This document shows, piece after piece, positions 17,381-26,848 of a stretch of 64,000 nucleotides of DNA. The position numbers and the translations under genes were made by a program. Every line of letters begins with the position of its first letter. Position 1 is the stretch's first letter. This DNA is from an uncultured Alphaproteobacteria bacterium (GTDB lineage: Bacteria > Pseudomonadota > Alphaproteobacteria > HIMB59), in the NCBI GenBank assembly GCA_902538085.1, contig CACBDV010000002.1:62001-126000 (forward strand), in the 5' to 3' direction. The notes below the pieces were generated by a model that ran no database searches, was not told where the DNA came from, and saw only the letters and a list, made by a program, of their open reading frames with translations.

Positions 17381-18403
17381 ATGTCTGAAACAAAAATTCA
17401 AATTAAAAAGTTATATAAAATTTTTGGTAAAAACCCAAAGTCTGCGTTAGAGCAAGTAAATGATGGTGTCAATAAAGATGAACTTTTAGAAAAGCATAAT
17501 CATGTTCTAGGTCTAAAAGATATTAATTTGGATATTAAAGAAAAATCAATTCAAGTTGTAATGGGCCTTTCTGGTTCAGGTAAGTCTACATTAATAAGAC
17601 ATATCAATAGATTAATAGAACCTACAGACGGCAGTGTGGTTGTTGATGGTGAAGATGTTTTAAAAATGAATGATGAAAGTTTAAGAAATTTCAGAAGAAC
17701 AAAAACTGCTATGGTATTCCAGCGTTTTGCTTTGTTGCCTCATAAGACGGTATTAGAAAATACACTGTTTGGTCTTCATATTCAAAATGTTGATGAAAAG
17801 GAGGCAAATACCAGAGCACGAAGATGGATTGATCGTGTTGGATTATCTGGATATGAGGAAAAATATCCTCAACATTTATCTGGTGGCATGCAGCAACGTG
17901 TTGGACTCGCAAGGGCTCTTACTAACGATGGGGAGATCTTACTTATGGATGAAGCTTTTAGCGCTCTTGACCCTCTAATTAGAAAAGATATGCAAGATAT
18001 TTTGTTGGAGCTACAAGACGAACTTCATAAAACAGTAGTATTTATTACTCATGACCTAGATGAAGCTTTAAAAATTGGAGATCGTATAGCAATATTAAAA
18101 GATGGCATAATGGATCAAGAGGGTATCCCCGCAGATATTTTATTAAGTCCAAAGACACAATATGTAAAAGATTTTGTTGAGGATGTTAATAGAGCTAGGG
18201 TTATTAAAGCAAAACACATAATGTCAAAATTAAACGGGCAAGACAGAGATAACGCTATGTTTGTAGATCAAGATGATTTTATTGATAGATTTATTGATAA
18301 AGTTATTTCTGATAAGCCAAGTTGCCTGATTGTCAAAAATAAGAGTAATGACGAAATAGGTTATTTGTCTACAAAAAGACTCTCTGAAATACTAAAACGA
18401 TAG
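17381..18403 (+). CDS. Betaine/proline-type ABC transporter ATP-binding protein (ProV/OpuAA-like)
   Basis: This 340-residue ATPase is of the quaternary-amine uptake type. Walker A GLSGSGKST is at 62-70, the ABC signature LSGGMQQR at 166-173, and Walker B LLMDE at 187-191. The N-terminal extension with YKIFGKNPK and the long C-terminal regulatory region after residue 265 match ProV/OpuAA. It is the first gene of ATPase-binding protein-permease. Likely cargo is glycine betaine, DMSP, TMAO or related onium compounds; the sequence cannot separate these. Confidence 0.92.
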   Translation: MSETKIQIKKLYKIFGKNPKSALEQVNDGVNKDELLEKHNHVLGLKDINLDIKEKSIQVVMGLSGSGKSTLIRHINRLIEPTDGSVVVDGEDVLKMNDESLRNFRRTKTAMVFQRFALLPHKTVLENTLFGLHIQNVDEKEANTRARRWIDRVGLSGYEEKYPQHLSGGMQQRVGLARALTNDGEILLMDEAFSALDPLIRKDMQDILLELQDELHKTVVFITHDLDEALKIGDRIAILKDGIMDQEGIPADILLSPKTQYVKDFVEDVNRARVIKAKHIMSKLNGQDRDNAMFVDQDDFIDRFIDKVISDKPSCLIVKNKSNDEIGYLSTKRLSEILKR

Positions 18404-18506: not shown

Positions 18507-18512
18507 GGGAGG
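18507..18512 (+). promoter_or_regulatory. Strong Shine-Dalgarno fixing the start of the ProX-like gene
   Basis: GGGAGG lies 5 nt upstream of the ATG at 18518. This start gives a clean Sec signal peptide, whereas an upstream in-frame start at 18428 would place 30 unrelated residues before it. Confidence 0.8.
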
Positions 18513-18517
18513 ATGTA

Positions 18518-19510
18518 ATGAACTCTATTAAAAAAATACTTCTGAGCTCAGTTCTATTATTTGGAATTAACTCAGTTGCAAAGGCTGATTGTGGGACAAT
18601 CACAATCGCTGAAATGAACTGGGCATCCGCCGAAATGTTTGCCCACGTTGATAAACTTATCCTTGAAGAGGGATATGGATGTGATGTTGAACTAGTTCCA
18701 GGTGATACTATGCCAACAGCTACATCAATGATGGAAAAAGGTGAGCCAGATGTCGCTCCAGAATTATGGATTAATTCCGTTCGTATTGCTTTAGATGCTG
18801 CTGTAGATGAAGGAAGACTTCACTACGCCGCTGAAGTTTTGTCTGATACTGGTGAAGAAGGATGGTGGATACCTCAATACTTAGCTGATGCAAACCCAGA
18901 CATCGTAACTGTTGAAGATGCTCTAGCAAGACCAGAATTATTTCCTCACCCAGAGGGTGATGGGGCAGCACTTTATACTTGTCCATCTGGATGGAACTGT
19001 CAAATCAGTACAGGAAACCTTTTCCAAGCATATGATGCTGAGTCAAAAGGATTTAATCTTGTAGATCCAGGCTCTGGTGGAGCATTAGCTGGTTCAATTG
19101 CTGAAGCTTACGAAAAAGGTGAAGGTTGGCTAGGTTATTACTGGGCACCAACAGCTATTCTAGGTAAGTATCCAATGAAAAAATTAGACTTTGGAGTACC
19201 TCATGACTTTGACGAGTGGAGTACTTGTACCTCTCAAGAAGGTTGTGCAGATCCACAGAAAAATTCATGGGTTGTATCATCAGTCTTTACTGTTGTAACT
19301 GATAATTTCATGAACTCTACTGGACCAGGAATGGACTACATTTCAAAAAGAGCACTTCCTAACTCAACTGTTAATGCGCTTTTAGCTTGGAAGGACGACA
19401 ACCAGGCAACAGGTGAAGACACAGCAATTTATTTCTTACAAAATTACTCAGAGTGGAAAAGCTGGGTAGACTTTGAAACAATGCTTGCTGTTGAGGCTGC
19501 AATAGACTAA
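18518..19510 (+). CDS. Betaine/onium ABC transporter substrate-binding protein (ProX-like)
   Basis: This 330-residue periplasmic binding protein starts with a signal peptide cleaved near VAKA/DCG (residue 23). The mature part begins with TITIAEMNWASAEM and contains several tryptophans (such as PELWIN, EGWWIP and YYWAP) suitable for an aromatic box around a quaternary ammonium or sulfonium group. It lies between the ATPase and permease genes. A hairpin follows the stop codon and may raise its level relative to the permease. Confidence 0.9.
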   Translation: MNSIKKILLSSVLLFGINSVAKADCGTITIAEMNWASAEMFAHVDKLILEEGYGCDVELVPGDTMPTATSMMEKGEPDVAPELWINSVRIALDAAVDEGRLHYAAEVLSDTGEEGWWIPQYLADANPDIVTVEDALARPELFPHPEGDGAALYTCPSGWNCQISTGNLFQAYDAESKGFNLVDPGSGGALAGSIAEAYEKGEGWLGYYWAPTAILGKYPMKKLDFGVPHDFDEWSTCTSQEGCADPQKNSWVVSSVFTVVTDNFMNSTGPGMDYISKRALPNSTVNALLAWKDDNQATGEDTAIYFLQNYSEWKSWVDFETMLAVEAAID

Positions 19511-19565: not shown

Positions 19566-20456
19566 ATGGAAGATTTCTTATCAGAGTTTCCGGAACTTAG
19601 CAGAGAAACACTTAGATTTATCAAAAAAGGTTTTGATGCATCTTATCGAGCTTTTTCAAGAGAATATGGTGATGCAATAGAAGCAGTATTTGATCCTGTC
19701 TTATATTTCCTAGTTTGGTTTGAAAAATTATTACAAAATTCACCTTGGCCAATTGTATTAATATGTTTTTTGGCTGTAATTTATTTTGGTAGTAGAAAAG
19801 TATCTGTAACCATTGGCTCATTATTTGCCTTTTTGCTTATAGGAATATTTGGGATGTGGGAAGACACAATGTCTACGGTGAGTATTATTGGAGTTTGCAC
19901 CATGCTTTCTATTGGAATTGGAATACCTGTTGGTGTACTTATGGCAAAATCAGAACGTGCTCAAAGAATTTGCACACCAATTCTAGACGTCATGCAAACA
20001 ATGCCAAGCTTCGTATATTTAATACCCGTAGTTATGTTATTGGGTATAGGAAAAATTCCCGGGCTTCTAGCTGTGGTAATATATGCGATACCACCTATTA
20101 TTAGACTTACAAACTTAGGTATAAGAGAGGTTGATAAAGAAGTTTTGGAAGCTGCTGATGCTTTTGGTGCTAATCCAAGACAAAAATTGTTTCAAGTACA
20201 ATTACCTTTAGCACTTCCAACAATATTTGCAGGAATTAATCAAACAATCATGATGGCTTTGGCAATGGTTGTGATTGCCTCAATGATTGGAGTTAAGGGA
20301 CTTGGTCAACCCGTTTTAAAAGCAATTACTAATCAATACTTTGCTATGGGTTTATTTAATGGTTTAGCAATTGTTGCATTGGCTATTATTTTTGACAGAG
20401 TTTCCCAATCATTTGGTCATCGTATTCAGCAACATAGAAGTGGTTCAAGAGAATAA
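19566..20456 (+). CDS. Betaine/onium ABC transporter permease (ProW-like)
   Basis: This 296-residue inner-membrane permease is of the ProW/OpuAB type. It has an amphipathic N-terminal region and then about six helices. The EAA loop for ATPase docking is seen as EAADAFGANPRQKLFQVQLPLALPTI (about residues 196-221), and QTMPSFVYLIPVVMLLGIGKIPG matches the family core. It completes the three-gene importer. Confidence 0.93.
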   Translation: MEDFLSEFPELSRETLRFIKKGFDASYRAFSREYGDAIEAVFDPVLYFLVWFEKLLQNSPWPIVLICFLAVIYFGSRKVSVTIGSLFAFLLIGIFGMWEDTMSTVSIIGVCTMLSIGIGIPVGVLMAKSERAQRICTPILDVMQTMPSFVYLIPVVMLLGIGKIPGLLAVVIYAIPPIIRLTNLGIREVDKEVLEAADAFGANPRQKLFQVQLPLALPTIFAGINQTIMMALAMVVIASMIGVKGLGQPVLKAITNQYFAMGLFNGLAIVALAIIFDRVSQSFGHRIQQHRSGSRE

Positions 20457-20512: not shown

Positions 20513-21571
20513 ATGCTCAATAAAAGTTTAATTGGTGTATTTTTCATAACTTTTATTTACCTACTAGCGATATTTTTAAAGCAACCCCTAGAATATGTCT
20601 TTAACCTACCATTATTACCATTAAGTCTTCTATCACTCATTTTGGGAATATTTTTTTTTAATATATTCACCATATCTTCTAATATTGTTGAAGGTCGAGA
20701 ATTTATTAAGAAAAATATACTTCAATTAGCAATTGTTTTATTAGGTATTAAGATAAGTTTGACTCAGTTATGGAGAGTCAGTATAGAGTCTATATTTGTC
20801 ATAATAATTACAATATTATCCATTTTTCTGACATATTTTTTTATTAAAAAATTTTGGCCAACTCAAACAGGCATATCAAAATTATTAGCAATCGGTACAT
20901 CCATTTGTGGTGTCACAGCTATTATGGCTTCCTCAACTATATTAAAATCAAAGGATCAAGAAGTAGCCGTGGCTATACTAATTGTGGTTTTATGGGGAAG
21001 TATAGCTGTATTAACATATCCTTTTTTTGTGGAGCTATTTTTTTTGACAGACTTAGCTAAAGGCATTTTTTTAGGCGTTAGTATTCACGATACAAGTCAA
21101 GTTTTAGCAGCTGCTATGGTTCATAGTGATTTACATCCAAATCAAAAGACTTTAGAAATCGCTACAATAACAAAAATAATTAGAAATTTATTTCTGTTAG
21201 CTTTGATACCGATATTAATTTTTTTTAATAAAAGTTCGAAAAATAATAAAAATAAAAGTCAATCTATCTTTGTTAGAATATTTAATTCAATTCCGCTTTT
21301 TGTAGTGGGTTTTATTTTATTTGCAACCTTTCGCTCATTTATGGACTTATACTTTTTTGATAATGAGAAATGGATAGAATTTTTAGTAATACTTGAAAAA
21401 TTAATTTCAATTCTATTTGGCCTAGCTCTTACAGCCCTTGGAGCCTCTATTGATTTGAGAAAAATCTTTAATCAAGGGTATGCTGCTATATTAATTGGTA
21501 TGACTTTTAGCTTTGTATCTTTTGTATCAGTAACATTCTTAATATTTATTTTAGGGCTAAATGTCTTATAG
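20513..21571 (+). CDS. YeiH/UPF0324-family putative sulfate exporter
   Basis: This 352-residue membrane protein has about ten hydrophobic segments. It carries the family motifs ICGVTAIMASS near residues 132-142, GVSIHDTSQVLAAA near residues 186-199 and a final ALGASIDLRKI. The family is annotated as putative sulfate or anion exporters, with limited experimental proof. It lies between the onium importer and the DmdA homologue, so a role in disposing of sulfur oxyanions from organosulfur catabolism is a reasonable inference. Confidence 0.82.
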   Translation: MLNKSLIGVFFITFIYLLAIFLKQPLEYVFNLPLLPLSLLSLILGIFFFNIFTISSNIVEGREFIKKNILQLAIVLLGIKISLTQLWRVSIESIFVIIITILSIFLTYFFIKKFWPTQTGISKLLAIGTSICGVTAIMASSTILKSKDQEVAVAILIVVLWGSIAVLTYPFFVELFFLTDLAKGIFLGVSIHDTSQVLAAAMVHSDLHPNQKTLEIATITKIIRNLFLLALIPILIFFNKSSKNNKNKSQSIFVRIFNSIPLFVVGFILFATFRSFMDLYFFDNEKWIEFLVILEKLISILFGLALTALGASIDLRKIFNQGYAAILIGMTFSFVSFVSVTFLIFILGLNVL

Positions 21572-21623: not shown

Positions 21624-22727
21624 ATGACCCACTTAATTGCTAAAAGTGCGAGACTTCGCTCTACCCCTTACACCAAAAGAATTGAGGAATATGGCGTACA
21701 ATCATACACAGTTTATAATCACATGCTTTTACCTGCATCTTTTAAAGGTATAGAGGAAGATAGTAGGCACCTAAAAAAAAATGTTCAACTTTGGGATGTA
21801 TCTGGCGAGAGACAAGTTCAAATTCATGGACCTGATGCAGCTAAACTTACACAATTAATTACGTGTAGAGATTTATCTGAGGCAAAAGATTATCTTTGCT
21901 ATTACGCTCCAATTATTGATGACAAAGGTAAAATTATTAATGATCCACTGATAATGAAAGTTGCTGAAAAAACATGGTGGCTATCAATAGCAGATACAGA
22001 TGTGCTTCTTTATGCAAAAGGAATTGCAATTGGTATGAACCTTGACGTTGAGATTACTGAACCCAATGTTAACATTCTTGCAGTTCAGGGGCCAAAATCA
22101 TTTGAGCTTATGTCAAGAGTGTTTAAAGACATAGATAAATTAAAATTTTTCAATTTCAAAAGATTTGATTTTCAAAATCATAAATTTTTAATTGCAAGAT
22201 CAGGTTGGTCCAAACAGGGTGGATTTGAAATTTATGTAGATCATGATGAAATCGGCTTAGATCTTTATGATACCCTTATGTCTAAAGGTGAAGATTTGGA
22301 TGTAAGACCCGGTTGTCCAAATTTAATTGAAAGGATAGAGGGTGGTCTATTATCATTTGGAAATGATATGAATATGAATGATACACCACTAGAATGTGGT
22401 TTGGGTTCTTTTGTTTCTTTCAATCCTAAGATAGATTATTTAGGAAAAGCTGAGCTAGAAAAACAGTACAAAGAGGGAGTTAAAAGATCTTTAGTTGGTT
22501 TAAAACTTAAACTGGATAAAATTGAAATTACAAAAGCGTTACCTTTAAAAATTGGTACTAATATTATAGGTGAACTAAGAGCCGCATGCTTTAGTCCAGA
22601 TTTTGGATGTTGTCTTGGAATATCGATGGTACAAACCCAATATCAAAGTTTAGAAAAAAAACAAACACTTCTTGTTGATGGCGAAGAGGTTGAGTCTGTA
22701 ATGACGAACCTGCCCTTCAATAAATAA
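21624..22727 (+). CDS. dmdA: DMSP demethylase-like aminomethyltransferase-fold protein (DmdA)
   Basis: This 367-residue protein has the GcvT/aminomethyltransferase fold. The segments YTVYNHMLLPASF, LWDVSGERQVQIHGPDA, ITCRDLSEAKDYLCYYAPIIDDKGKI (read in parts), ARSGWSKQGGFEIYV and CPNLIERIEGGLLSFGNDM match what I know of DmdA rather than the glycine-cleavage T protein. DmdA transfers a methyl group of dimethylsulfoniopropionate to tetrahydrofolate, giving methylmercaptopropionate. The nearby onium ABC importer supports this. A paralogue acting on another methylated substrate cannot be excluded. No dmdB, dmdC or dmdD is in the window. Confidence 0.8.
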   Translation: MTHLIAKSARLRSTPYTKRIEEYGVQSYTVYNHMLLPASFKGIEEDSRHLKKNVQLWDVSGERQVQIHGPDAAKLTQLITCRDLSEAKDYLCYYAPIIDDKGKIINDPLIMKVAEKTWWLSIADTDVLLYAKGIAIGMNLDVEITEPNVNILAVQGPKSFELMSRVFKDIDKLKFFNFKRFDFQNHKFLIARSGWSKQGGFEIYVDHDEIGLDLYDTLMSKGEDLDVRPGCPNLIERIEGGLLSFGNDMNMNDTPLECGLGSFVSFNPKIDYLGKAELEKQYKEGVKRSLVGLKLKLDKIEITKALPLKIGTNIIGELRAACFSPDFGCCLGISMVQTQYQSLEKKQTLLVDGEEVESVMTNLPFNK

Positions 22728-22765: not shown

Positions 22766-24019
22766 GTGTTAAATATCGTTTATAGTTCTTGGGCTCTATT
22801 TACAGGTTTTGGATTCATTATGCTTGCACATTCTTTGCAAGGAACCTTGTTAAATATTAATGCCGTATTATTTAATTTTTCCGATTTTGAAATTGGATAC
22901 GTCTTTACAGGTTATTTTATGGGTTATTTAGTAAGCTCATATATTTGTCCGAAAATTATCAAAAATGTAGGACATATAAGAGTATTTGCAGCATTCGCAT
23001 CCATTGCTTCCATTACAATTTTATTTCATTGGATTTATGTTCAACCGTATTTTTGGTTTTTTTTAAGATTCCTCACAGGGTTTTCATTGGCAGCAATATA
23101 TATCGTTTGTGAAAGTTGGCTAAATGATCGTGCTGATAATAGAACAAGGGGGAAGCTCATAGGATTTTACATGGTGATATTATACTTCTCAACTAGTGGG
23201 GGTGGTTTGCTAATAAATCTAAAAGAGACTACTGAGGCACACTTATATATTCTAACATCTTTATTAATTTCTTTTGCTTTAGTTCCAATTTTGCTTACTA
23301 AAAAATCAGCACCAGAATTTTCTACACCTAAGTTCATATCTTTAAAAGATCTATATAAAAATTCTCCCATGTCTTTTATCGGTTCTTTTGGTATTGGTAT
23401 GATATATGGAGCATCATTTGGATTAATTGCAGTCTTTGGAGCTAAGTTAGGCTTAAGTATTTTTCAAATTTCTATACTTGTTTTTATAAATACTTTCATT
23501 GGAGCTTTATTTCAGTATCCGGTTGGTAAACTATCGGATACATTTGATAGAAGAATAATTTTACTGATATTAAATATCATTGCTTTGGTCTCATCTATTT
23601 GTGTAATTATTTTCGGATCTTTTTCATTTAATATTCTTTTATTATTTGTTGGAATACATTCAGCTGTATCTCTTCCTTACTATGCAGTTGTTATTTCTCA
23701 TCTCAATGATTTTTTAGAAAAGGATGAGGTTGTTTCTGCTAGTTCAACTCTGACATTAGTTAATGCATTAGGTTTAGTTTTAGGGCCAATTATCGTCTCT
23801 GGATTTATGTCTTATTTTGATGCCTATGGATTGTTTTATTATTGTGCAATAGTTTATGTTTTTCTGGCACTATTTACCTATCAAAGAGTAAGAGTTGGAA
23901 GAACTAGTGAAATTTATGATGAGAATACACCATCTATGATTGTGCCTCGCACCGCTTCCGCAATAGGAATGCAAACTGCTACTGAACAAATGATTAGTAA
24001 AATTGATAAAAAAGAGTAA
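22766..24019 (+). CDS. Major facilitator superfamily transporter (YcaD-like)
   Basis: This 417-residue, twelve-helix MFS permease has a GTG start at 22766. The MFS loop 2-3 motif is weak, but VCESWLNDRADNRTRGKLIGFYMV and GKLSDTFDRR match the YcaD-like branch. It ends in a short soluble tail. The substrate is unknown. It lies 38 nt after dmdA and just before the RidA gene, so it is probably in the same transcript. Confidence 0.82.
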   Translation: MLNIVYSSWALFTGFGFIMLAHSLQGTLLNINAVLFNFSDFEIGYVFTGYFMGYLVSSYICPKIIKNVGHIRVFAAFASIASITILFHWIYVQPYFWFFLRFLTGFSLAAIYIVCESWLNDRADNRTRGKLIGFYMVILYFSTSGGGLLINLKETTEAHLYILTSLLISFALVPILLTKKSAPEFSTPKFISLKDLYKNSPMSFIGSFGIGMIYGASFGLIAVFGAKLGLSIFQISILVFINTFIGALFQYPVGKLSDTFDRRIILLILNIIALVSSICVIIFGSFSFNILLLFVGIHSAVSLPYYAVVISHLNDFLEKDEVVSASSTLTLVNALGLVLGPIIVSGFMSYFDAYGLFYYCAIVYVFLALFTYQRVRVGRTSEIYDENTPSMIVPRTASAIGMQTATEQMISKIDKKE

Positions 24020-24556: not shown

Positions 24557-25681
24557 ATGGATTTTCATTTTGAAAACAATACTATTAAGATAATTCATCA
24601 AAATAAGACATTTCATTTGCATCCCATTTGGTTAAGAGAGAGACTACCGGGTGAAAAATATTTTGATTTAGATACTAATCAAAGATTATATGAGCCATCC
24701 TCTATTGACTTAAAGTTGAAAATTGAAAATTGTAAATTAACAAATAACAAACTTGATGTTGAATTTAATGATGGGGCACAAGGTCAATATCGTTTAGATG
24801 ATCTTTTGATTGAAATGGATGAAGAAAAAAATAAAAGAGGGCCCTTACCAAAAAGAATTTTATGGAATTCTCAACTAGAAGATTTACCTGAAGCTATTTT
24901 TGAAGTAGATATGGTTGAACAAGAATCTATGTATAATCTTCTTATAGATTTTTATAAATATGGATTTGTTATTATTAAAAATGTACCAACTGAGAGTAAG
25001 TATATTTTAAAATTTGTAAATTCAATCGGCCCAGTTAAGGTCACAAATTTTGGAGAGTTTTTTGATGTAATGTCTAAACCAAATCCAAATGACTTAGCCT
25101 ATAAACCTATTGCATTACCGCCTCATACTGATAACCCTTACAGAAAACCAGAAGCACCCGGGATACAGTTTTTGCATTGTTTAAAAAATGAAGTGAGTGG
25201 TGGTTTTTCTACTCTTGTTGATGGTTTTTCAGTTGCAGAATATATCAAATTAAATGAGCCAGAAGCATTTGAGTCTTTAACAAAAACAAATTTACGTTAC
25301 CGATTTCAAGATAAAGATATAATTTTAGAAAATTGGGGAGAGTTAATTGAATTAGACAAGGATGGCGACTATAAGCAAGTCAGGTATAGTACTAGAGTTG
25401 ATTACGTGCCACCTTTAGAAAATGAAAAATTAGAGAGTTTTTACAAAGCGAGAAAATTATTAGGAGATTTATACACTTCATCTGACTTCGAGATAAAATT
25501 TAAGCTCTCACCTGGAGATGTCATGATGTTTGATAACCACAGACTTCTCCATGGAAGAACCTCTTATGACTCGAGTGAGGGAGCTAGACATTTACAAGGT
25601 TGTTATCTAGAATTTGATTCAACTGATGGAAAATTGAGACATTTACATGAAAAATATCGTCTAAGTGAGACAAATTTATGA
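24557..25681 (+). CDS. Fe(II)/2-oxoglutarate dioxygenase, gamma-butyrobetaine-hydroxylase-like (TmpA-like candidate)
   Basis: This 374-residue protein has an N-terminal DUF971/GBBH-type domain (residues 1 to about 95) and a TauD-type dioxygenase domain. The iron ligands are H190 and D192 (PPHTDNPYR) and H332 (LLHGR), with R344 as the likely 2-oxoglutarate anchor. The N-terminal Cys zinc ligands of human GBBH are absent. The family normally hydroxylates gamma-butyrobetaine to carnitine. However, the 4-nt overlap with an HD-domain oxygenase-like gene is the arrangement of TmpA/TmpB, where TmpA hydroxylates 2-(trimethylamino)ethylphosphonate. I favour TmpA-like; a true GBBH or PhnY-like role remains possible. 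Confidence 0.75.
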   Translation: MDFHFENNTIKIIHQNKTFHLHPIWLRERLPGEKYFDLDTNQRLYEPSSIDLKLKIENCKLTNNKLDVEFNDGAQGQYRLDDLLIEMDEEKNKRGPLPKRILWNSQLEDLPEAIFEVDMVEQESMYNLLIDFYKYGFVIIKNVPTESKYILKFVNSIGPVKVTNFGEFFDVMSKPNPNDLAYKPIALPPHTDNPYRKPEAPGIQFLHCLKNEVSGGFSTLVDGFSVAEYIKLNEPEAFESLTKTNLRYRFQDKDIILENWGELIELDKDGDYKQVRYSTRVDYVPPLENEKLESFYKARKLLGDLYTSSDFEIKFKLSPGDVMMFDNHRLLHGRTSYDSSEGARHLQGCYLEFDSTDGKLRHLHEKYRLSETNL

Positions 25682-26283
25682 CTGAGAAAAATGTAAAATT
25701 TAAACATATGAAAGATGGAGATAAAGAAGATTATCTATTGCTCCAAAAATATGAGGAAAAGTATGTTTCTTTGACATATGAAAGAATAATCGAAGAACTT
25801 ACAAGACAAGGAAAAAATACTATGGAGGGTTACAAGATAACAAGATTAGATCATGGTCTACAATCAGCTACTAGAGCTTATAATGATGGAGCTGACATTG
25901 ATTGGATTGTTGGTGCCTTACTTCATGATATTGGAGATGGGCTTGCCCCTCAAAATCACGATAGGTTTTCTGCTGAAGTTGTAAGACCTTATGTAAGAGA
26001 CGAAATAACATGGGTGATTGAGCATCATGGAATTTTTCAAATGATCTACTATGCTCATCATTATGGATGGGATAAAAATGCTAGAGATAAATTTAAAGAT
26101 AATATTTATTTCCAAACTTGCGCAGATTTCTGTGAAAGATGGGATCAAAAATCTTTTGATCCCGAATATAAAAATAAAGATCTAGATTTTTTTAAACCCT
26201 TGATTAAAGAGGTATTTAGCAGACCTCCCTATAAAGATGAATACATCAAAAAAAATGAAGTTTTAGGTTTACCAAAAGTTTAA
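25678..26283 (+). CDS. HD-domain protein, PhnZ/TmpB-like oxygenase candidate
   Basis: This 201-residue HD-domain protein has metal-ligand candidates H59 (RLDHGLQ), H83-D84 (LLHDIGD), H94 (PQNHDRF), H117 (IEHHGIFQ) and D156 (CERWDQKSFDP). This six-ligand pattern with EHHG and a late Asp matches the mixed-valent di-iron oxygenase subgroup (PhnZ, TmpB, MIOX) more than HD phosphatases. TmpB converts the hydroxylated trimethylaminoethylphosphonate to glycine betaine and phosphate. The ATG overlaps the dioxygenase stop by 4 nt (ATGA), giving coupled translation. The PhnZ lid Tyr/Glu cannot be confirmed by eye. Confidence 0.72.
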   Translation: MTEKNVKFKHMKDGDKEDYLLLQKYEEKYVSLTYERIIEELTRQGKNTMEGYKITRLDHGLQSATRAYNDGADIDWIVGALLHDIGDGLAPQNHDRFSAEVVRPYVRDEITWVIEHHGIFQMIYYAHHYGWDKNARDKFKDNIYFQTCADFCERWDQKSFDPEYKNKDLDFFKPLIKEVFSRPPYKDEYIKKNEVLGLPKV

Positions 26284-26323: not shown

Positions 26324-26848
26324 ATGAGAATTTTCTTGATAACTTTGAGTATTTTACTCACAAGCATAGGGAGCATTATGGCGAAAAACTTATATAACTT
26401 TAGTATTCAAGATATTGATGGAAATACAGTTAATCTTGATAAATTTAAAGGTAAACCCATTCTTCTTGTTAATACGGCTAGTAGATGTGGTTTCACAAAA
26501 CAATACGCTAATCTATCCAATCTTCATCGTGAGTATTTTGAAAAGAATTTAGTAATTATTGGAACTCCTTCTAATAGTTTTCATCAAGAGCTGAGTAATA
26601 ATGAGGAAGTTAAAGAATTTTGTTTAGTTAATTATGAAACCAAATTTATTATATCAGAAATTATTAGTGTTGTTGGTGAAAATGCCCATCCGATATACAG
26701 TTGGATGACATCAGAATATAACGAAACTCCAAAGTGGAATTTTTATAAGTATCTCTTTGATGGGGAAGGTCGTTTAGTTAAAAGTTGGTCCTCTATTACT
26801 AAGCCGGACAGCTCTAAAATAACCAAGAAAATTGATACGCTTTTATAA
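26324..26848 (+). CDS. Glutathione peroxidase family protein (Cys type, exported)
   Basis: This 174-residue thiol peroxidase of the GPx family has catalytic C55 in NTASRCGFT (Cys in place of selenocysteine). Gln and Trp tetrad partners are seen at GTPSNSF (an unusual variant of the usual FPCNQF) and WNFYKYLFD. An N-terminal hydrophobic signal (about residues 1-20, ending IMA/KNL) suggests periplasmic location. The GTPSNSF variant loses the resolving Cys and the Gln, which is odd for the family and may alter reductant use. Confidence 0.82.
   Translation: MRIFLITLSILLTSIGSIMAKNLYNFSIQDIDGNTVNLDKFKGKPILLVNTASRCGFTKQYANLSNLHREYFEKNLVIIGTPSNSFHQELSNNEEVKEFCLVNYETKFIISEIISVVGENAHPIYSWMTSEYNETPKWNFYKYLFDGEGRLVKSWSSITKPDSSKITKKIDTLL

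What the first reader, a model, noticed from the sequence alone, without database searches (positions are those of the whole stretch)
24557..26283. Overlapping dioxygenase/HD-oxygenase pair that looks like TmpA-TmpB (organophosphonate to glycine betaine)
Seen: a gamma-butyrobetaine-hydroxylase-like 2-oxoglutarate dioxygenase (H190, D192, H332) overlaps by 4 nt a 201-residue HD protein with six metal-ligand candidates (H59, H83, D84, H94, H117, D156). Known: TmpA/TmpB oxidise 2-(trimethylamino)ethylphosphonate to glycine betaine and phosphate, and both are usually misannotated as GBBH and HD phosphohydrolase; PhnY/PhnZ is the parallel 2-aminoethylphosphonate system. Inference: a phosphorus- and betaine-yielding route in a streamlined marine bacterium, placed beside an onium importer. 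The substrate could be a related phosphonate not yet described.
Basis: partly seen in the sequence, partly recalled or inferred. Interest (0 to 1): 0.82.

Follow-up and report, generated by a model that had tools for sequence, protein, structure and literature searches.

The report
Sulfonium-acid oxygenase pair beside DMSP genes
Two overlapping genes in a tiny ocean bacterium look like the known phosphonate-splitting pair TmpA/TmpB but have lost most of its phosphonate-binding residues, sit in a gene run for importing and using the algal sulfur compound DMSP, and probably break down DMSP-like molecules instead.

Summary
In detail: a 374-aa 2OG dioxygenase (DIOX) overlaps by 4 nt a 201-aa HD protein with the H..HD..H..H..D set. 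The TmpA-TmpB reading is half right. DIOX lies in a clade sister to TmpA. At TmpA's phosphonate ligands N187/N287/R288 it has D/T/R, and it falls below the TmpA cut-off. HD has the PhnZ/TmpB oxygenase fold but belongs to a separate family without the YxxE loop and without three further residues invariant in TmpB. The pair ends a co-directional run with a DmpX-like DMSP importer (7 of 8 DMSP-pocket residues) and DmdA. Some HD relatives elsewhere follow the DMSP lyase DddP or sit beside choline genes. In the genus, 41 of 52 genomes have this DIOX; 31 of the 41 have HD, and the other 10 carry an enolase-superfamily protein in the same slot, which points to a carboxylate product. Best reading: a TmpA/TmpB-like module for oxidative chain-shortening of an onium carboxylate (DMSP or an analogue). 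The substrate is inferred, not shown; a PstS-like gene beside the pair in one distant lineage keeps a phosphonate alive. New variant of a known kind.

The parts
17381..18403 (+). ABC ATPase, ProV/ChoV-like (DmpV position)
   Evidence: TIGR01186 338 bits, over its cut-off 326.6
18512..19510 (+). DmpX-like DMSP substrate-binding protein (ORF listed from 18428; start 18512 chosen here)
   Evidence: PF04069; only PDB match at E<=1e-5 is 7YLE = RnDmpX with DMSP, E 3.5e-74; 7 of 8 DMSP-pocket residues identical
19566..20456 (+). ABC permease, ProW-like (DmpW position)
   Evidence: PF00528; best NCBIfam matches ProW and choline permease, below their cut-offs
20513..21571 (+). YeiH-like membrane protein
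   Evidence: PF03601; TIGR00698 below cut-off
21624..22727 (+). DmdA, DMSP demethylase
   Evidence: NF009133 485 bits, cut-off 410
22766..24019 (+). MFS transporter
   Evidence: PF07690
24033..24491 (+). Rid-family protein (ORF listed from 24003)
   Evidence: PF14588, PF01042; TIGR00004 below cut-off
24557..25681 (+). DIOX: 2OG-Fe dioxygenase of a clade sister to TmpA; D179, T279 and R280 stand at TmpA N187, N287 and R288
25678..26283 (+). HD: HD-domain protein with PhnZ/TmpB fold, HDIGD family; D87, Q121 and E153 stand at residues invariant as H, K and R in 10 TmpB proteins
26324..26848 (+). glutathione-peroxidase-like protein; downstream border of the HD/ENO slot
   Evidence: PF00255; seen beside the slot in 37 of 38 genus loci, the 38th (L282) being cut by a contig end

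Best explanation
The pair is a two-step oxygenase module that works like TmpA/TmpB on a carboxylate instead of a phosphonate. DIOX hydroxylates an onium carboxylate that the adjacent DmpX-like importer brings in, DMSP or a close analogue such as beta-alanine betaine. HD, as a diiron oxygenase, then splits the C-C bond at the new C-OH with O2 and without a cosubstrate: R-CH(OH)-COO- + O2 -> R-COO- + HCO3- (for DMSP: 2-hydroxy-DMSP -> dimethylsulfonioacetate + bicarbonate; for beta-alanine betaine: glycine betaine + bicarbonate). In sister strains the enolase-superfamily protein ENO takes the same hydroxy acid without O2, for example by alpha-proton abstraction and loss of the beta leaving group (for 2-hydroxy-DMSP: pyruvate + dimethyl sulfide). 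Shown: genes, fold, residue changes, gene order, HD/ENO exchange. Inferred: cofactors, substrate, both reactions.
For: Importer: only PDB match is RnDmpX/DMSP, 7 of 8 pocket residues kept. DmdA over its cut-off in the same run; ten genes on the + strand, gaps -4 to 108 nt. DmdA upstream of the pair in 24 of 24 named genus loci with full upstream reach. HD relatives: in 9 of 51 named loci L034-L084 HD directly follows a DddP homologue; the one tested scores 817 bits (cut-off 600). DIOX-HD-ChoX-choline dehydrogenase-ALDH on a Pseudomonas plasmid and HD-choline dehydrogenase-ChoX-ALDH in a Rhizobium. HD/ENO exchange in one slot: 31 HD and 10 ENO among 41 DIOX genomes of 52; 5 changes on the tree, at least 4 forced by well-supported branches. 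Lost phosphonate residues. Oxygenase fold.
Against: No substrate was tested. The importer gene lies within 8 kb upstream in only 15 of 24 named genus loci with full reach. DIOX D179 stands where TMLH Asp231 binds an alpha-ammonium, awkward for a plain carboxylate. In L192 and L194 a PstS-like gene (L192: 157 bits, cut-off 206.6) follows DIOX-HD, which hints at phosphorus. The two nearest HD relatives outside the genus (78%, L034/L035) have neither DddP nor DIOX beside them. Most of the HD family has no DIOX nearby: 0 of 51 named non-genus loci and 8 of 80 G-loci, two of those with an N-type DIOX. Onium genes other than DIOX are not clearly enriched around the family: 5 of 80 loci against 0 of 40 random stretches, p = 0.13. 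That ENO acts on the DIOX product is inferred from its position.
Confidence: 0.46

Rival explanations
1. Genuine phosphonate route: the pair oxidises TMAEP or a related onium phosphonate to a betaine and phosphate, as TmpA/TmpB do.
For: DIOX scores best on the TmpA model and is sister to the TmpA clade; R280 is kept at TmpA R288. HD fold nearest PhnZ/TmpB. A PstS-like gene follows DIOX-HD in L192 and L194.
Against: TmpA N187 and N287 changed to D and T; HD lacks the YxxE loop and has D, Q, E where 10 TmpB proteins have invariant H, K, R. No PhnE over cut-off in the own genome, about 86% complete. DMSP neighbourhood. ENO exchange. At least 5 genomes carry both a TmpB over its cut-off and this HD.
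Confidence: 0.18
2. Onium amino acid route: DIOX beta-hydroxylates a sulfonium or trimethylammonium alpha-amino acid (S-methylmethionine, trimethyllysine or similar), HD splits C2-C3 to an onium acid plus iminoacetate, and the Rid protein hydrolyses the imine.
For: DIOX D179 stands at the column of TMLH Asp231, which binds the alpha-ammonium; a protein over the TMLD cut-off, L322, also has D there. A Rid gene lies directly upstream in HD and ENO strains alike. ENO dehydration of a 3-hydroxy-2-amino acid would also give an imine (inference).
Against: Score on the TMLD model is low (196, cut-off 268). The second substrate-end residue differs from the TMLD-like rows (T, P, S or G against N). The importer looks like a DMSP importer, not an amino-acid one. 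Rid proteins are common (recalled).
Confidence: 0.18
3. Beta-hydroxy acid route: DIOX acts as a GBBH-like C3 hydroxylase and HD splits the carnitine- or gonyol-like product to a betaine or DMSP plus glycolate.
For: GBBH is the next best family (258 bits). Gonyol and dimethylsulfonioacetate are phytoplankton compounds (PMC7221440, search listing and start of abstract only).
Against: Far below the GBBH cut-off (258 against 415); BBOX N191 is changed to D. The own genome has a separate GBBH-like gene beside a 3-hydroxyacyl-CoA-dehydrogenase-like gene.
Confidence: 0.08
4. The HD protein is a phosphohydrolase and the neighbourhood is coincidental.
For: Dinuclear hydrolases also occur among HD proteins, for example YqeK (PMC8177086 passages).
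Against: The 10 Foldseek matches at E<=0.001 are PhnZ or TmpB; the next best match has E 0.42. 4-nt overlap with a dioxygenase and recurrence across the genus.
Confidence: 0.06

Closest known systems
TmpA/TmpB (TMAEP to glycine betaine + phosphate)
   Same: Architecture: GBBH-like 2OG dioxygenase plus HD oxygenase, same order; Fe triad; H..HD..H..H..D set; DIOX clade sister to the TmpA clade; HD fold.
   Different: Below both curated cut-offs; TmpA N187/N287 replaced; no YxxE loop; D, Q, E at three residues invariant as H, K, R in 10 TmpB proteins; DMSP neighbourhood; ENO can replace HD.
PhnY*/PhnZ (2-aminoethylphosphonate to glycine + phosphate)
   Same: HD fold about equally near to PhnZ and TmpB. 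Some members of this HD family pair with a PhyH-type dioxygenase, the superfamily of PhnY* (recalled).
   Different: HD matches PhnZ by sequence mainly over the first HD motif; DIOX here is of the GBBH/TmpA type.
GBBH/BBOX and TMLH
   Same: Same dioxygenase superfamily; aromatic residues kept at the BBOX cage columns (F165, F169, Y182; BBOX roles recalled); D at the TMLH Asp231 column.
   Different: Below both cut-offs (258/415, 196/268); GBBH-like rows fall outside the clade.
DmpXWV importer and DmdA, DMSP demethylation
   Same: Importer SBP and DmdA of the window belong here.
   Different: In Ruegeria pomeroyi dmpXWV is not beside known DMSP catabolic genes (PMC10030565 passages). No oxygenase pair is part of the DMSP routes known to me (recalled).

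Membership tests
TmpA | NCBIfam NF049936 curated cut-off 400 bits | tested here: not met
   336 bits; ten D-type or near-D-type relatives 320-398 bits (nine, one)
TmpA | Fe-binding HxD...H | tested here: met
   H190, D192, H332
TmpA | phosphonate ligands N187, N287, R288 (PMC9296572 passages) | tested here: not met
   D179, T279, R280 at these columns: 1 of 3 kept
TmpA | place inside the TmpA clade | tested here: not met
   13 D-type rows form one group (92/94), beside and not inside the TmpA clade; root at midpoint
TmpA | hydroxylates TMAEP | not testable with these tools
   needs an assay
TmpB | NCBIfam NF049941 curated cut-off 300 bits | tested here: not met
   26.6 bits, residues 40-87 only
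TmpB | YxxE substrate loop (PMC8177086 passages) | tested here: not met
   M49 and Y52 at the Y and E columns; Y52 invariant in 47 sequences
TmpB | His, Lys and Arg matching PhnZ H62, K108, R158 (phosphonate role recalled) | tested here: not met
   invariant in 10 TmpB proteins as H63, K108, R158; D87, Q121, E153 here, invariant in 47 sequences; E153 varies in some more distant relatives such as L106, L109, L114
HD-domain diiron oxygenase (MIOX/PhnZ/TmpB kind) | H...HD...H...H...D ligand set | tested here: met
   all six invariant in 47 sequences; paired with the TmpB set
HD-domain diiron oxygenase (MIOX/PhnZ/TmpB kind) | fold of PhnZ/TmpB | tested here: met
   AF2 pLDDT 86; top 10 matches PhnZ/TmpB, TM 0.58-0.68
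HD-domain diiron oxygenase (MIOX/PhnZ/TmpB kind) | mixed-valent Fe(II)/Fe(III) cofactor, four-electron oxidation | not testable with these tools
   needs EPR and O2 stoichiometry
GBBH | TIGR02409 cut-off 414.75 bits | tested here: not met
   258 bits
TMLD | TIGR02410 cut-off 268.3 bits | tested here: not met
   196 bits
DmpX | DMSP pocket W35, T64, W84, E113, W152, A153, Y200, W202 (PMC10030565 passages) | tested here: met
   7 of 8 identical, A153 is N; binding itself not tested
DmdA | NF009133 cut-off 410 bits | tested here: met
   485 bits

The most novel reading that the evidence does not exclude
The HDIGD family is an undescribed kind of HD diiron oxygenase: an O2-dependent oxidative decarboxylase of alpha-hydroxy onium acids. 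With its dioxygenase partner it forms an oxidative DMSP route beside demethylation and lysis. Family members in Labrenzia/Roseibium and Rhizobium are then candidates for the unidentified DMSHB decarboxylases of DMSP metabolism; PMC11306096 (passages) calls DsyGD the only known enzyme with this activity and the enzymes of L. aggregata and Rhizobium unidentified.
Probability: 0.15. Interest if true: 0.92.

Novelty: new variant of a known kind. Interest (0 to 1): 0.68.

Why it matters
If true, a small marine bacterium with many near relatives among AG-numbered genome records has an oxygen-dependent way of using DMSP-type compounds that annotation would hide as 'TmpA/GBBH' and 'HD phosphohydrolase'. 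It would matter for sulfur and betaine budgets, and it warns that counting such pairs as phosphonate genes overstates phosphonate use. The HD/ENO exchange gives two natural solutions for what looks like one intermediate, so one set of assays can identify the substrate.

Tried and rejected
Rejected: a fusion partner for HD in L188; the 821-aa frame is an out-of-frame overlap. Tried without gain: distant ENO relatives (34-38%, L304-L307) show no telling neighbours; PhnE in the own genome, none over cut-off; text searches for DddP or DmdA together with HD domain found 0 papers each. A random-stretch control did not show clear enrichment of onium genes around the HD family at large; this weakens any claim about the whole family.

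Limits of counts: the named loci (51) and G-loci (80) were chosen as HD carriers and the 40 random stretches lie in genomes of the G set. The comparison 11 of 12 (genomes with D-type DIOX that have HD) against 79 of 279 (Fisher 5e-6) takes handles up to G278 as the 279 genomes, uses a list of HD carriers (E<1e-20) that I transcribed, includes one outlying D-type protein (G159, L144), is not corrected for kinship, and the two genes are adjacent in only 6 of the 11; weaker dioxygenase hits (below about 300 bits) were only partly classified. G390, with a broken DIOX, was left out of the 41. One search looked at 38 loci from 35 of the 41 DIOX genomes; the 6 not fetched (G403, G404, G405, G407, G414, G424) have HD next to DIOX by their coordinates. 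The tree has 65 rows but 41 different ones, since several strains are present twice; its one row without a label is L282, whose HD lies across a contig break. Two dioxygenases near an HD gene are N-type, not D-type: L095 (divergent strand) and L169/L226 (about 0.9 kb away). Family labels of clustered neighbours (PhyH, Rieske, DddP) were tested on representatives, not on every locus.
Full report
CHECK OF THE OBSERVATION. The two ORFs are at 24557-25681 and 25678-26283, + strand, with a 4-nt ATGA overlap. The named residues are present. In the window they belong to a run of ten + strand genes with gaps of -4 to 108 nt: ABC ATPase, substrate-binding protein (SBP), permease, YeiH-like, DmdA, MFS, Rid, DIOX, HD, GPX. 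The window lies in a 1.25-Mb draft genome, about 86% complete, window G+C 30.8%. The nearest named relatives are records titled Pelagibacteraceae bacterium or uncultured Alphaproteobacteria bacterium, AG-numbered isolates.

DIOX. On NCBIfam it scores 336 bits on TmpA (cut-off 400), 258 on GBBH (415) and 196 on TMLD (268). In the PDB, TmpA (159 bits) is level with GBBH (155). A tree of 44 proteins puts it in a group of 13 D-type proteins (92/94) on the TmpA side (D-type and TmpA rows together 99/97) but outside the TmpA clade; the root is a midpoint one. TmpA holds the phosphonate with N187, N287 and R288 (PMC9296572, passages). At these columns the window has D179, T279 and R280. In the alignment every DIOX that lies directly upstream of this HD family has the D, followed by S/N-[TPS]-R/K-x-D; no protein of the TmpA clade does. 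Two dioxygenases that lie near an HD gene but less tightly (L095 on the other strand, L169/L226 about 0.9 kb away) have N instead. D is also what TMLH has (Asp231, equal to BBOX Asn191; alpha-ammonium binding; PMC7764450, passages), and what L322, which passes the TMLD cut-off, has.

HD. Sequence matches to PhnZ and TmpB are weak and mainly over the first HD motif. The AF2 model from 47 sequences (pLDDT 86) has 10 matches at E<=0.001, all PhnZ or TmpB; the next match has E 0.42. So it has the oxygenase fold. A profile alignment with 10 TmpB proteins pairs all six metal residues. But TmpB's Y25, E28, H63, K108 and R158, invariant in those 10, read M49, Y52, D87, Q121 and E153; the last four are invariant in 47 members of this family, though E153 varies in some more distant ones (L106, L109, L114). 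The YxxE loop is the substrate loop of PhnZ and TmpB (PMC8177086, passages); H62, K108 and R158 as PhnZ phosphonate residues are recalled. The two families coexist: 10 of 289 class genomes have a TmpB over the cut-off, and at least G022, G148, G154, G194 and G287 of these also have this HD. This HD family is wide: 128 of 385 class genomes have a match at E<=0.001, some of them weak and perhaps of other HD families, and 258 stretches in named genomes encode a relative, of which the best 80 were kept.

NEIGHBOURHOOD. The SBP has one PDB match at E<=1e-5, 7YLE (E 3.5e-74), which is RnDmpX with DMSP (PMC10030565, passages); 7 of the 8 DMSP-pocket residues are identical. DmdA passes its cut-off, 485 against 410. 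Among 24 named genus loci with full 8-kb upstream reach, DmdA is present in 24 and the SBP in 15, so the link to the importer is looser than that to DmdA. Among 51 named HD loci outside the genus, 9 (L037-L045, HD 70-72% identical) have a DddP homologue directly upstream of HD; the one tested, L038, scores 817 bits (cut-off 600). The two nearest, L034 and L035 (78%), instead have an amidotransferase-like, an FwdC-like and a GltB-like gene, all distant matches, tested in L034. Others have a PhyH-type dioxygenase upstream, tested in L053, L078 and L180. D-type DIOX with HD recurs in L102, L104, L108, L110, L112 and L154/L205. But most of the family has no DIOX nearby: 0 of the 51 named loci and 8 of the 80 G-loci. 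In L192/L194 a PstS-like gene follows the pair (L192: PF12849, TIGR02136 157 bits, cut-off 206.6); this is the best evidence for phosphorus. On the plasmid of Pseudomonas aeruginosa F045 the order is LysR, DIOX, HD, ChoX (458 bits, cut-off 379), choline dehydrogenase (PRK02106 756, cut-off 605; BetA equivalog 674, below 732), aldehyde dehydrogenase, and the DIOX is D-type. A Rhizobium plasmid has a GbcB-like gene (304, cut-off 500), HD, choline dehydrogenase (729 on PRK02106), ChoX (467) and an aldehyde dehydrogenase. Phaeobacter and Ruegeria plasmid copies of HD have no such neighbours. A control weakens a general claim: onium genes including DIOX occur in 12 of 80 G-loci with HD and 1 of 40 random stretches (p = 0.03); without DIOX 5 of 80 and 0 of 40 (p = 0.13).

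THE HD/ENO EXCHANGE. Of 52 genomes of the genus, 41 have the D-type DIOX (66-100% identical; one further genome has a broken copy) and 31 have HD, all among the 41. In the other 10 (G030, G385, G388, G389, G393, G395, G401, G409, G427, G431) the slot between DIOX and GPX holds an enolase-superfamily protein of about 382 aa (PF13378 and PF02746; PDB 4jhm E 8.5e-73). None of the 38 loci examined, from 35 of the 41 genomes, had both. G409, G427 and G431 have DIOX 95-98% identical to the window's, ENO 96% identical to that of G030, and GPX only 75-79% identical to the window's, which looks like recombination of the 3' part. The DIOX tree needs 5 changes between HD and ENO; well-supported branches force at least 4. 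Enolase-superfamily enzymes act by removing a proton next to a carboxylate (established knowledge). If ENO takes the DIOX product, that product is a carboxylate.

HOW IT MOST LIKELY WORKS. TMAEP, DMSP and beta-alanine betaine are isosteres apart from the acid group and the onium atom. A TmpA-like hydroxylation next to the acid and a PhnZ-type four-electron cleavage would give bicarbonate where TmpB gives phosphate. For DMSP the product would be dimethylsulfonioacetate, a compound known from phytoplankton (PMC7221440, search listing and start of abstract only); for beta-alanine betaine it would be glycine betaine, which fits the choline genes of the two plasmids. ENO on 2-hydroxy-DMSP could lose DMS and give pyruvate, by acid-sugar-dehydratase logic. 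These reactions are inference. D179 and the Rid gene keep an onium amino acid open; the PstS-like gene keeps a phosphonate open.

NOVELTY. Searches for the pair in a DMSP setting found nothing: DddP with HD domain and DMSP, 0 papers; DmdA with HD domain, dioxygenase and SAR11, 0 papers; of 40 papers holding three of DMSP, 2OG-dependent, dioxygenase and diiron, none of the 10 listed has a title on it. A 2024 paper calls DsyGD the only known enzyme with DMSHB decarboxylase activity, states that the enzymes of L. aggregata and Rhizobium are unidentified and that R. pomeroyi lacks the activity (PMC11306096, passages). This HD family is present in Labrenzia/Roseibium species and Rhizobium plasmids, which makes it a testable candidate and no more; its presence in L. 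aggregata itself and its absence from R. pomeroyi were not tested.

Noticed in passing
L258:10865-12013 (and the same slot in L276, L278, L288, L290, L293, L298-L301): Enolase-superfamily protein replaces the HD gene in 10 of 41 DIOX-bearing genomes of the genus, with signs of cassette recombination.
   Followed up: yes
L338:7926-13883 (Pseudomonas aeruginosa plasmid pF045_1): DIOX-HD pair beside a choline-binding protein, choline dehydrogenase and aldehyde dehydrogenase.
   Followed up: partly
L339:1337-10543 (Rhizobium sp. CB3060 plasmid): HD gene in a cluster with GbcB-like reductase, an unassigned 369-aa protein, choline dehydrogenase, ChoX and aldehyde dehydrogenase; no DIOX seen in the stretch.
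   Followed up: partly
L263:9738-11853 (own genome, contig C6): A second, GBBH-like dioxygenase beside a 3-hydroxyacyl-CoA-dehydrogenase-like gene, a possible separate carnitine route.
   Followed up: partly
L258:1570-6236: In G030 an aldehyde dehydrogenase, an M19 dipeptidase, a 551-aa protein without Pfam match and a DUF3726 protein lie between importer genes and DmdA.
   Followed up: no
L258:16157-17296: A second DmdA-like protein just below the DmdA cut-off (387 against 410 bits), about 33% identical to the window's DmdA.
   Followed up: no
L192:4691-5863 and L194:6619-7791: PstS-like substrate-binding protein directly downstream of a DIOX-HD pair, with LysR and a histidine kinase nearby.
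   Followed up: partly
L227, L230, L220: HD copies (tandem in L227 and L230) beside GbcA-like Rieske oxygenases and PhyH-type dioxygenases.
   Followed up: no
L053, L055, L060, L062, L078, L080, L084, L180, L197: Members of the HD family directly downstream of a PhyH-type dioxygenase (Kiloniella, Sulfitobacter, Nioella and others; three of them tested), a parallel of PhnY*-PhnZ.
   Followed up: no
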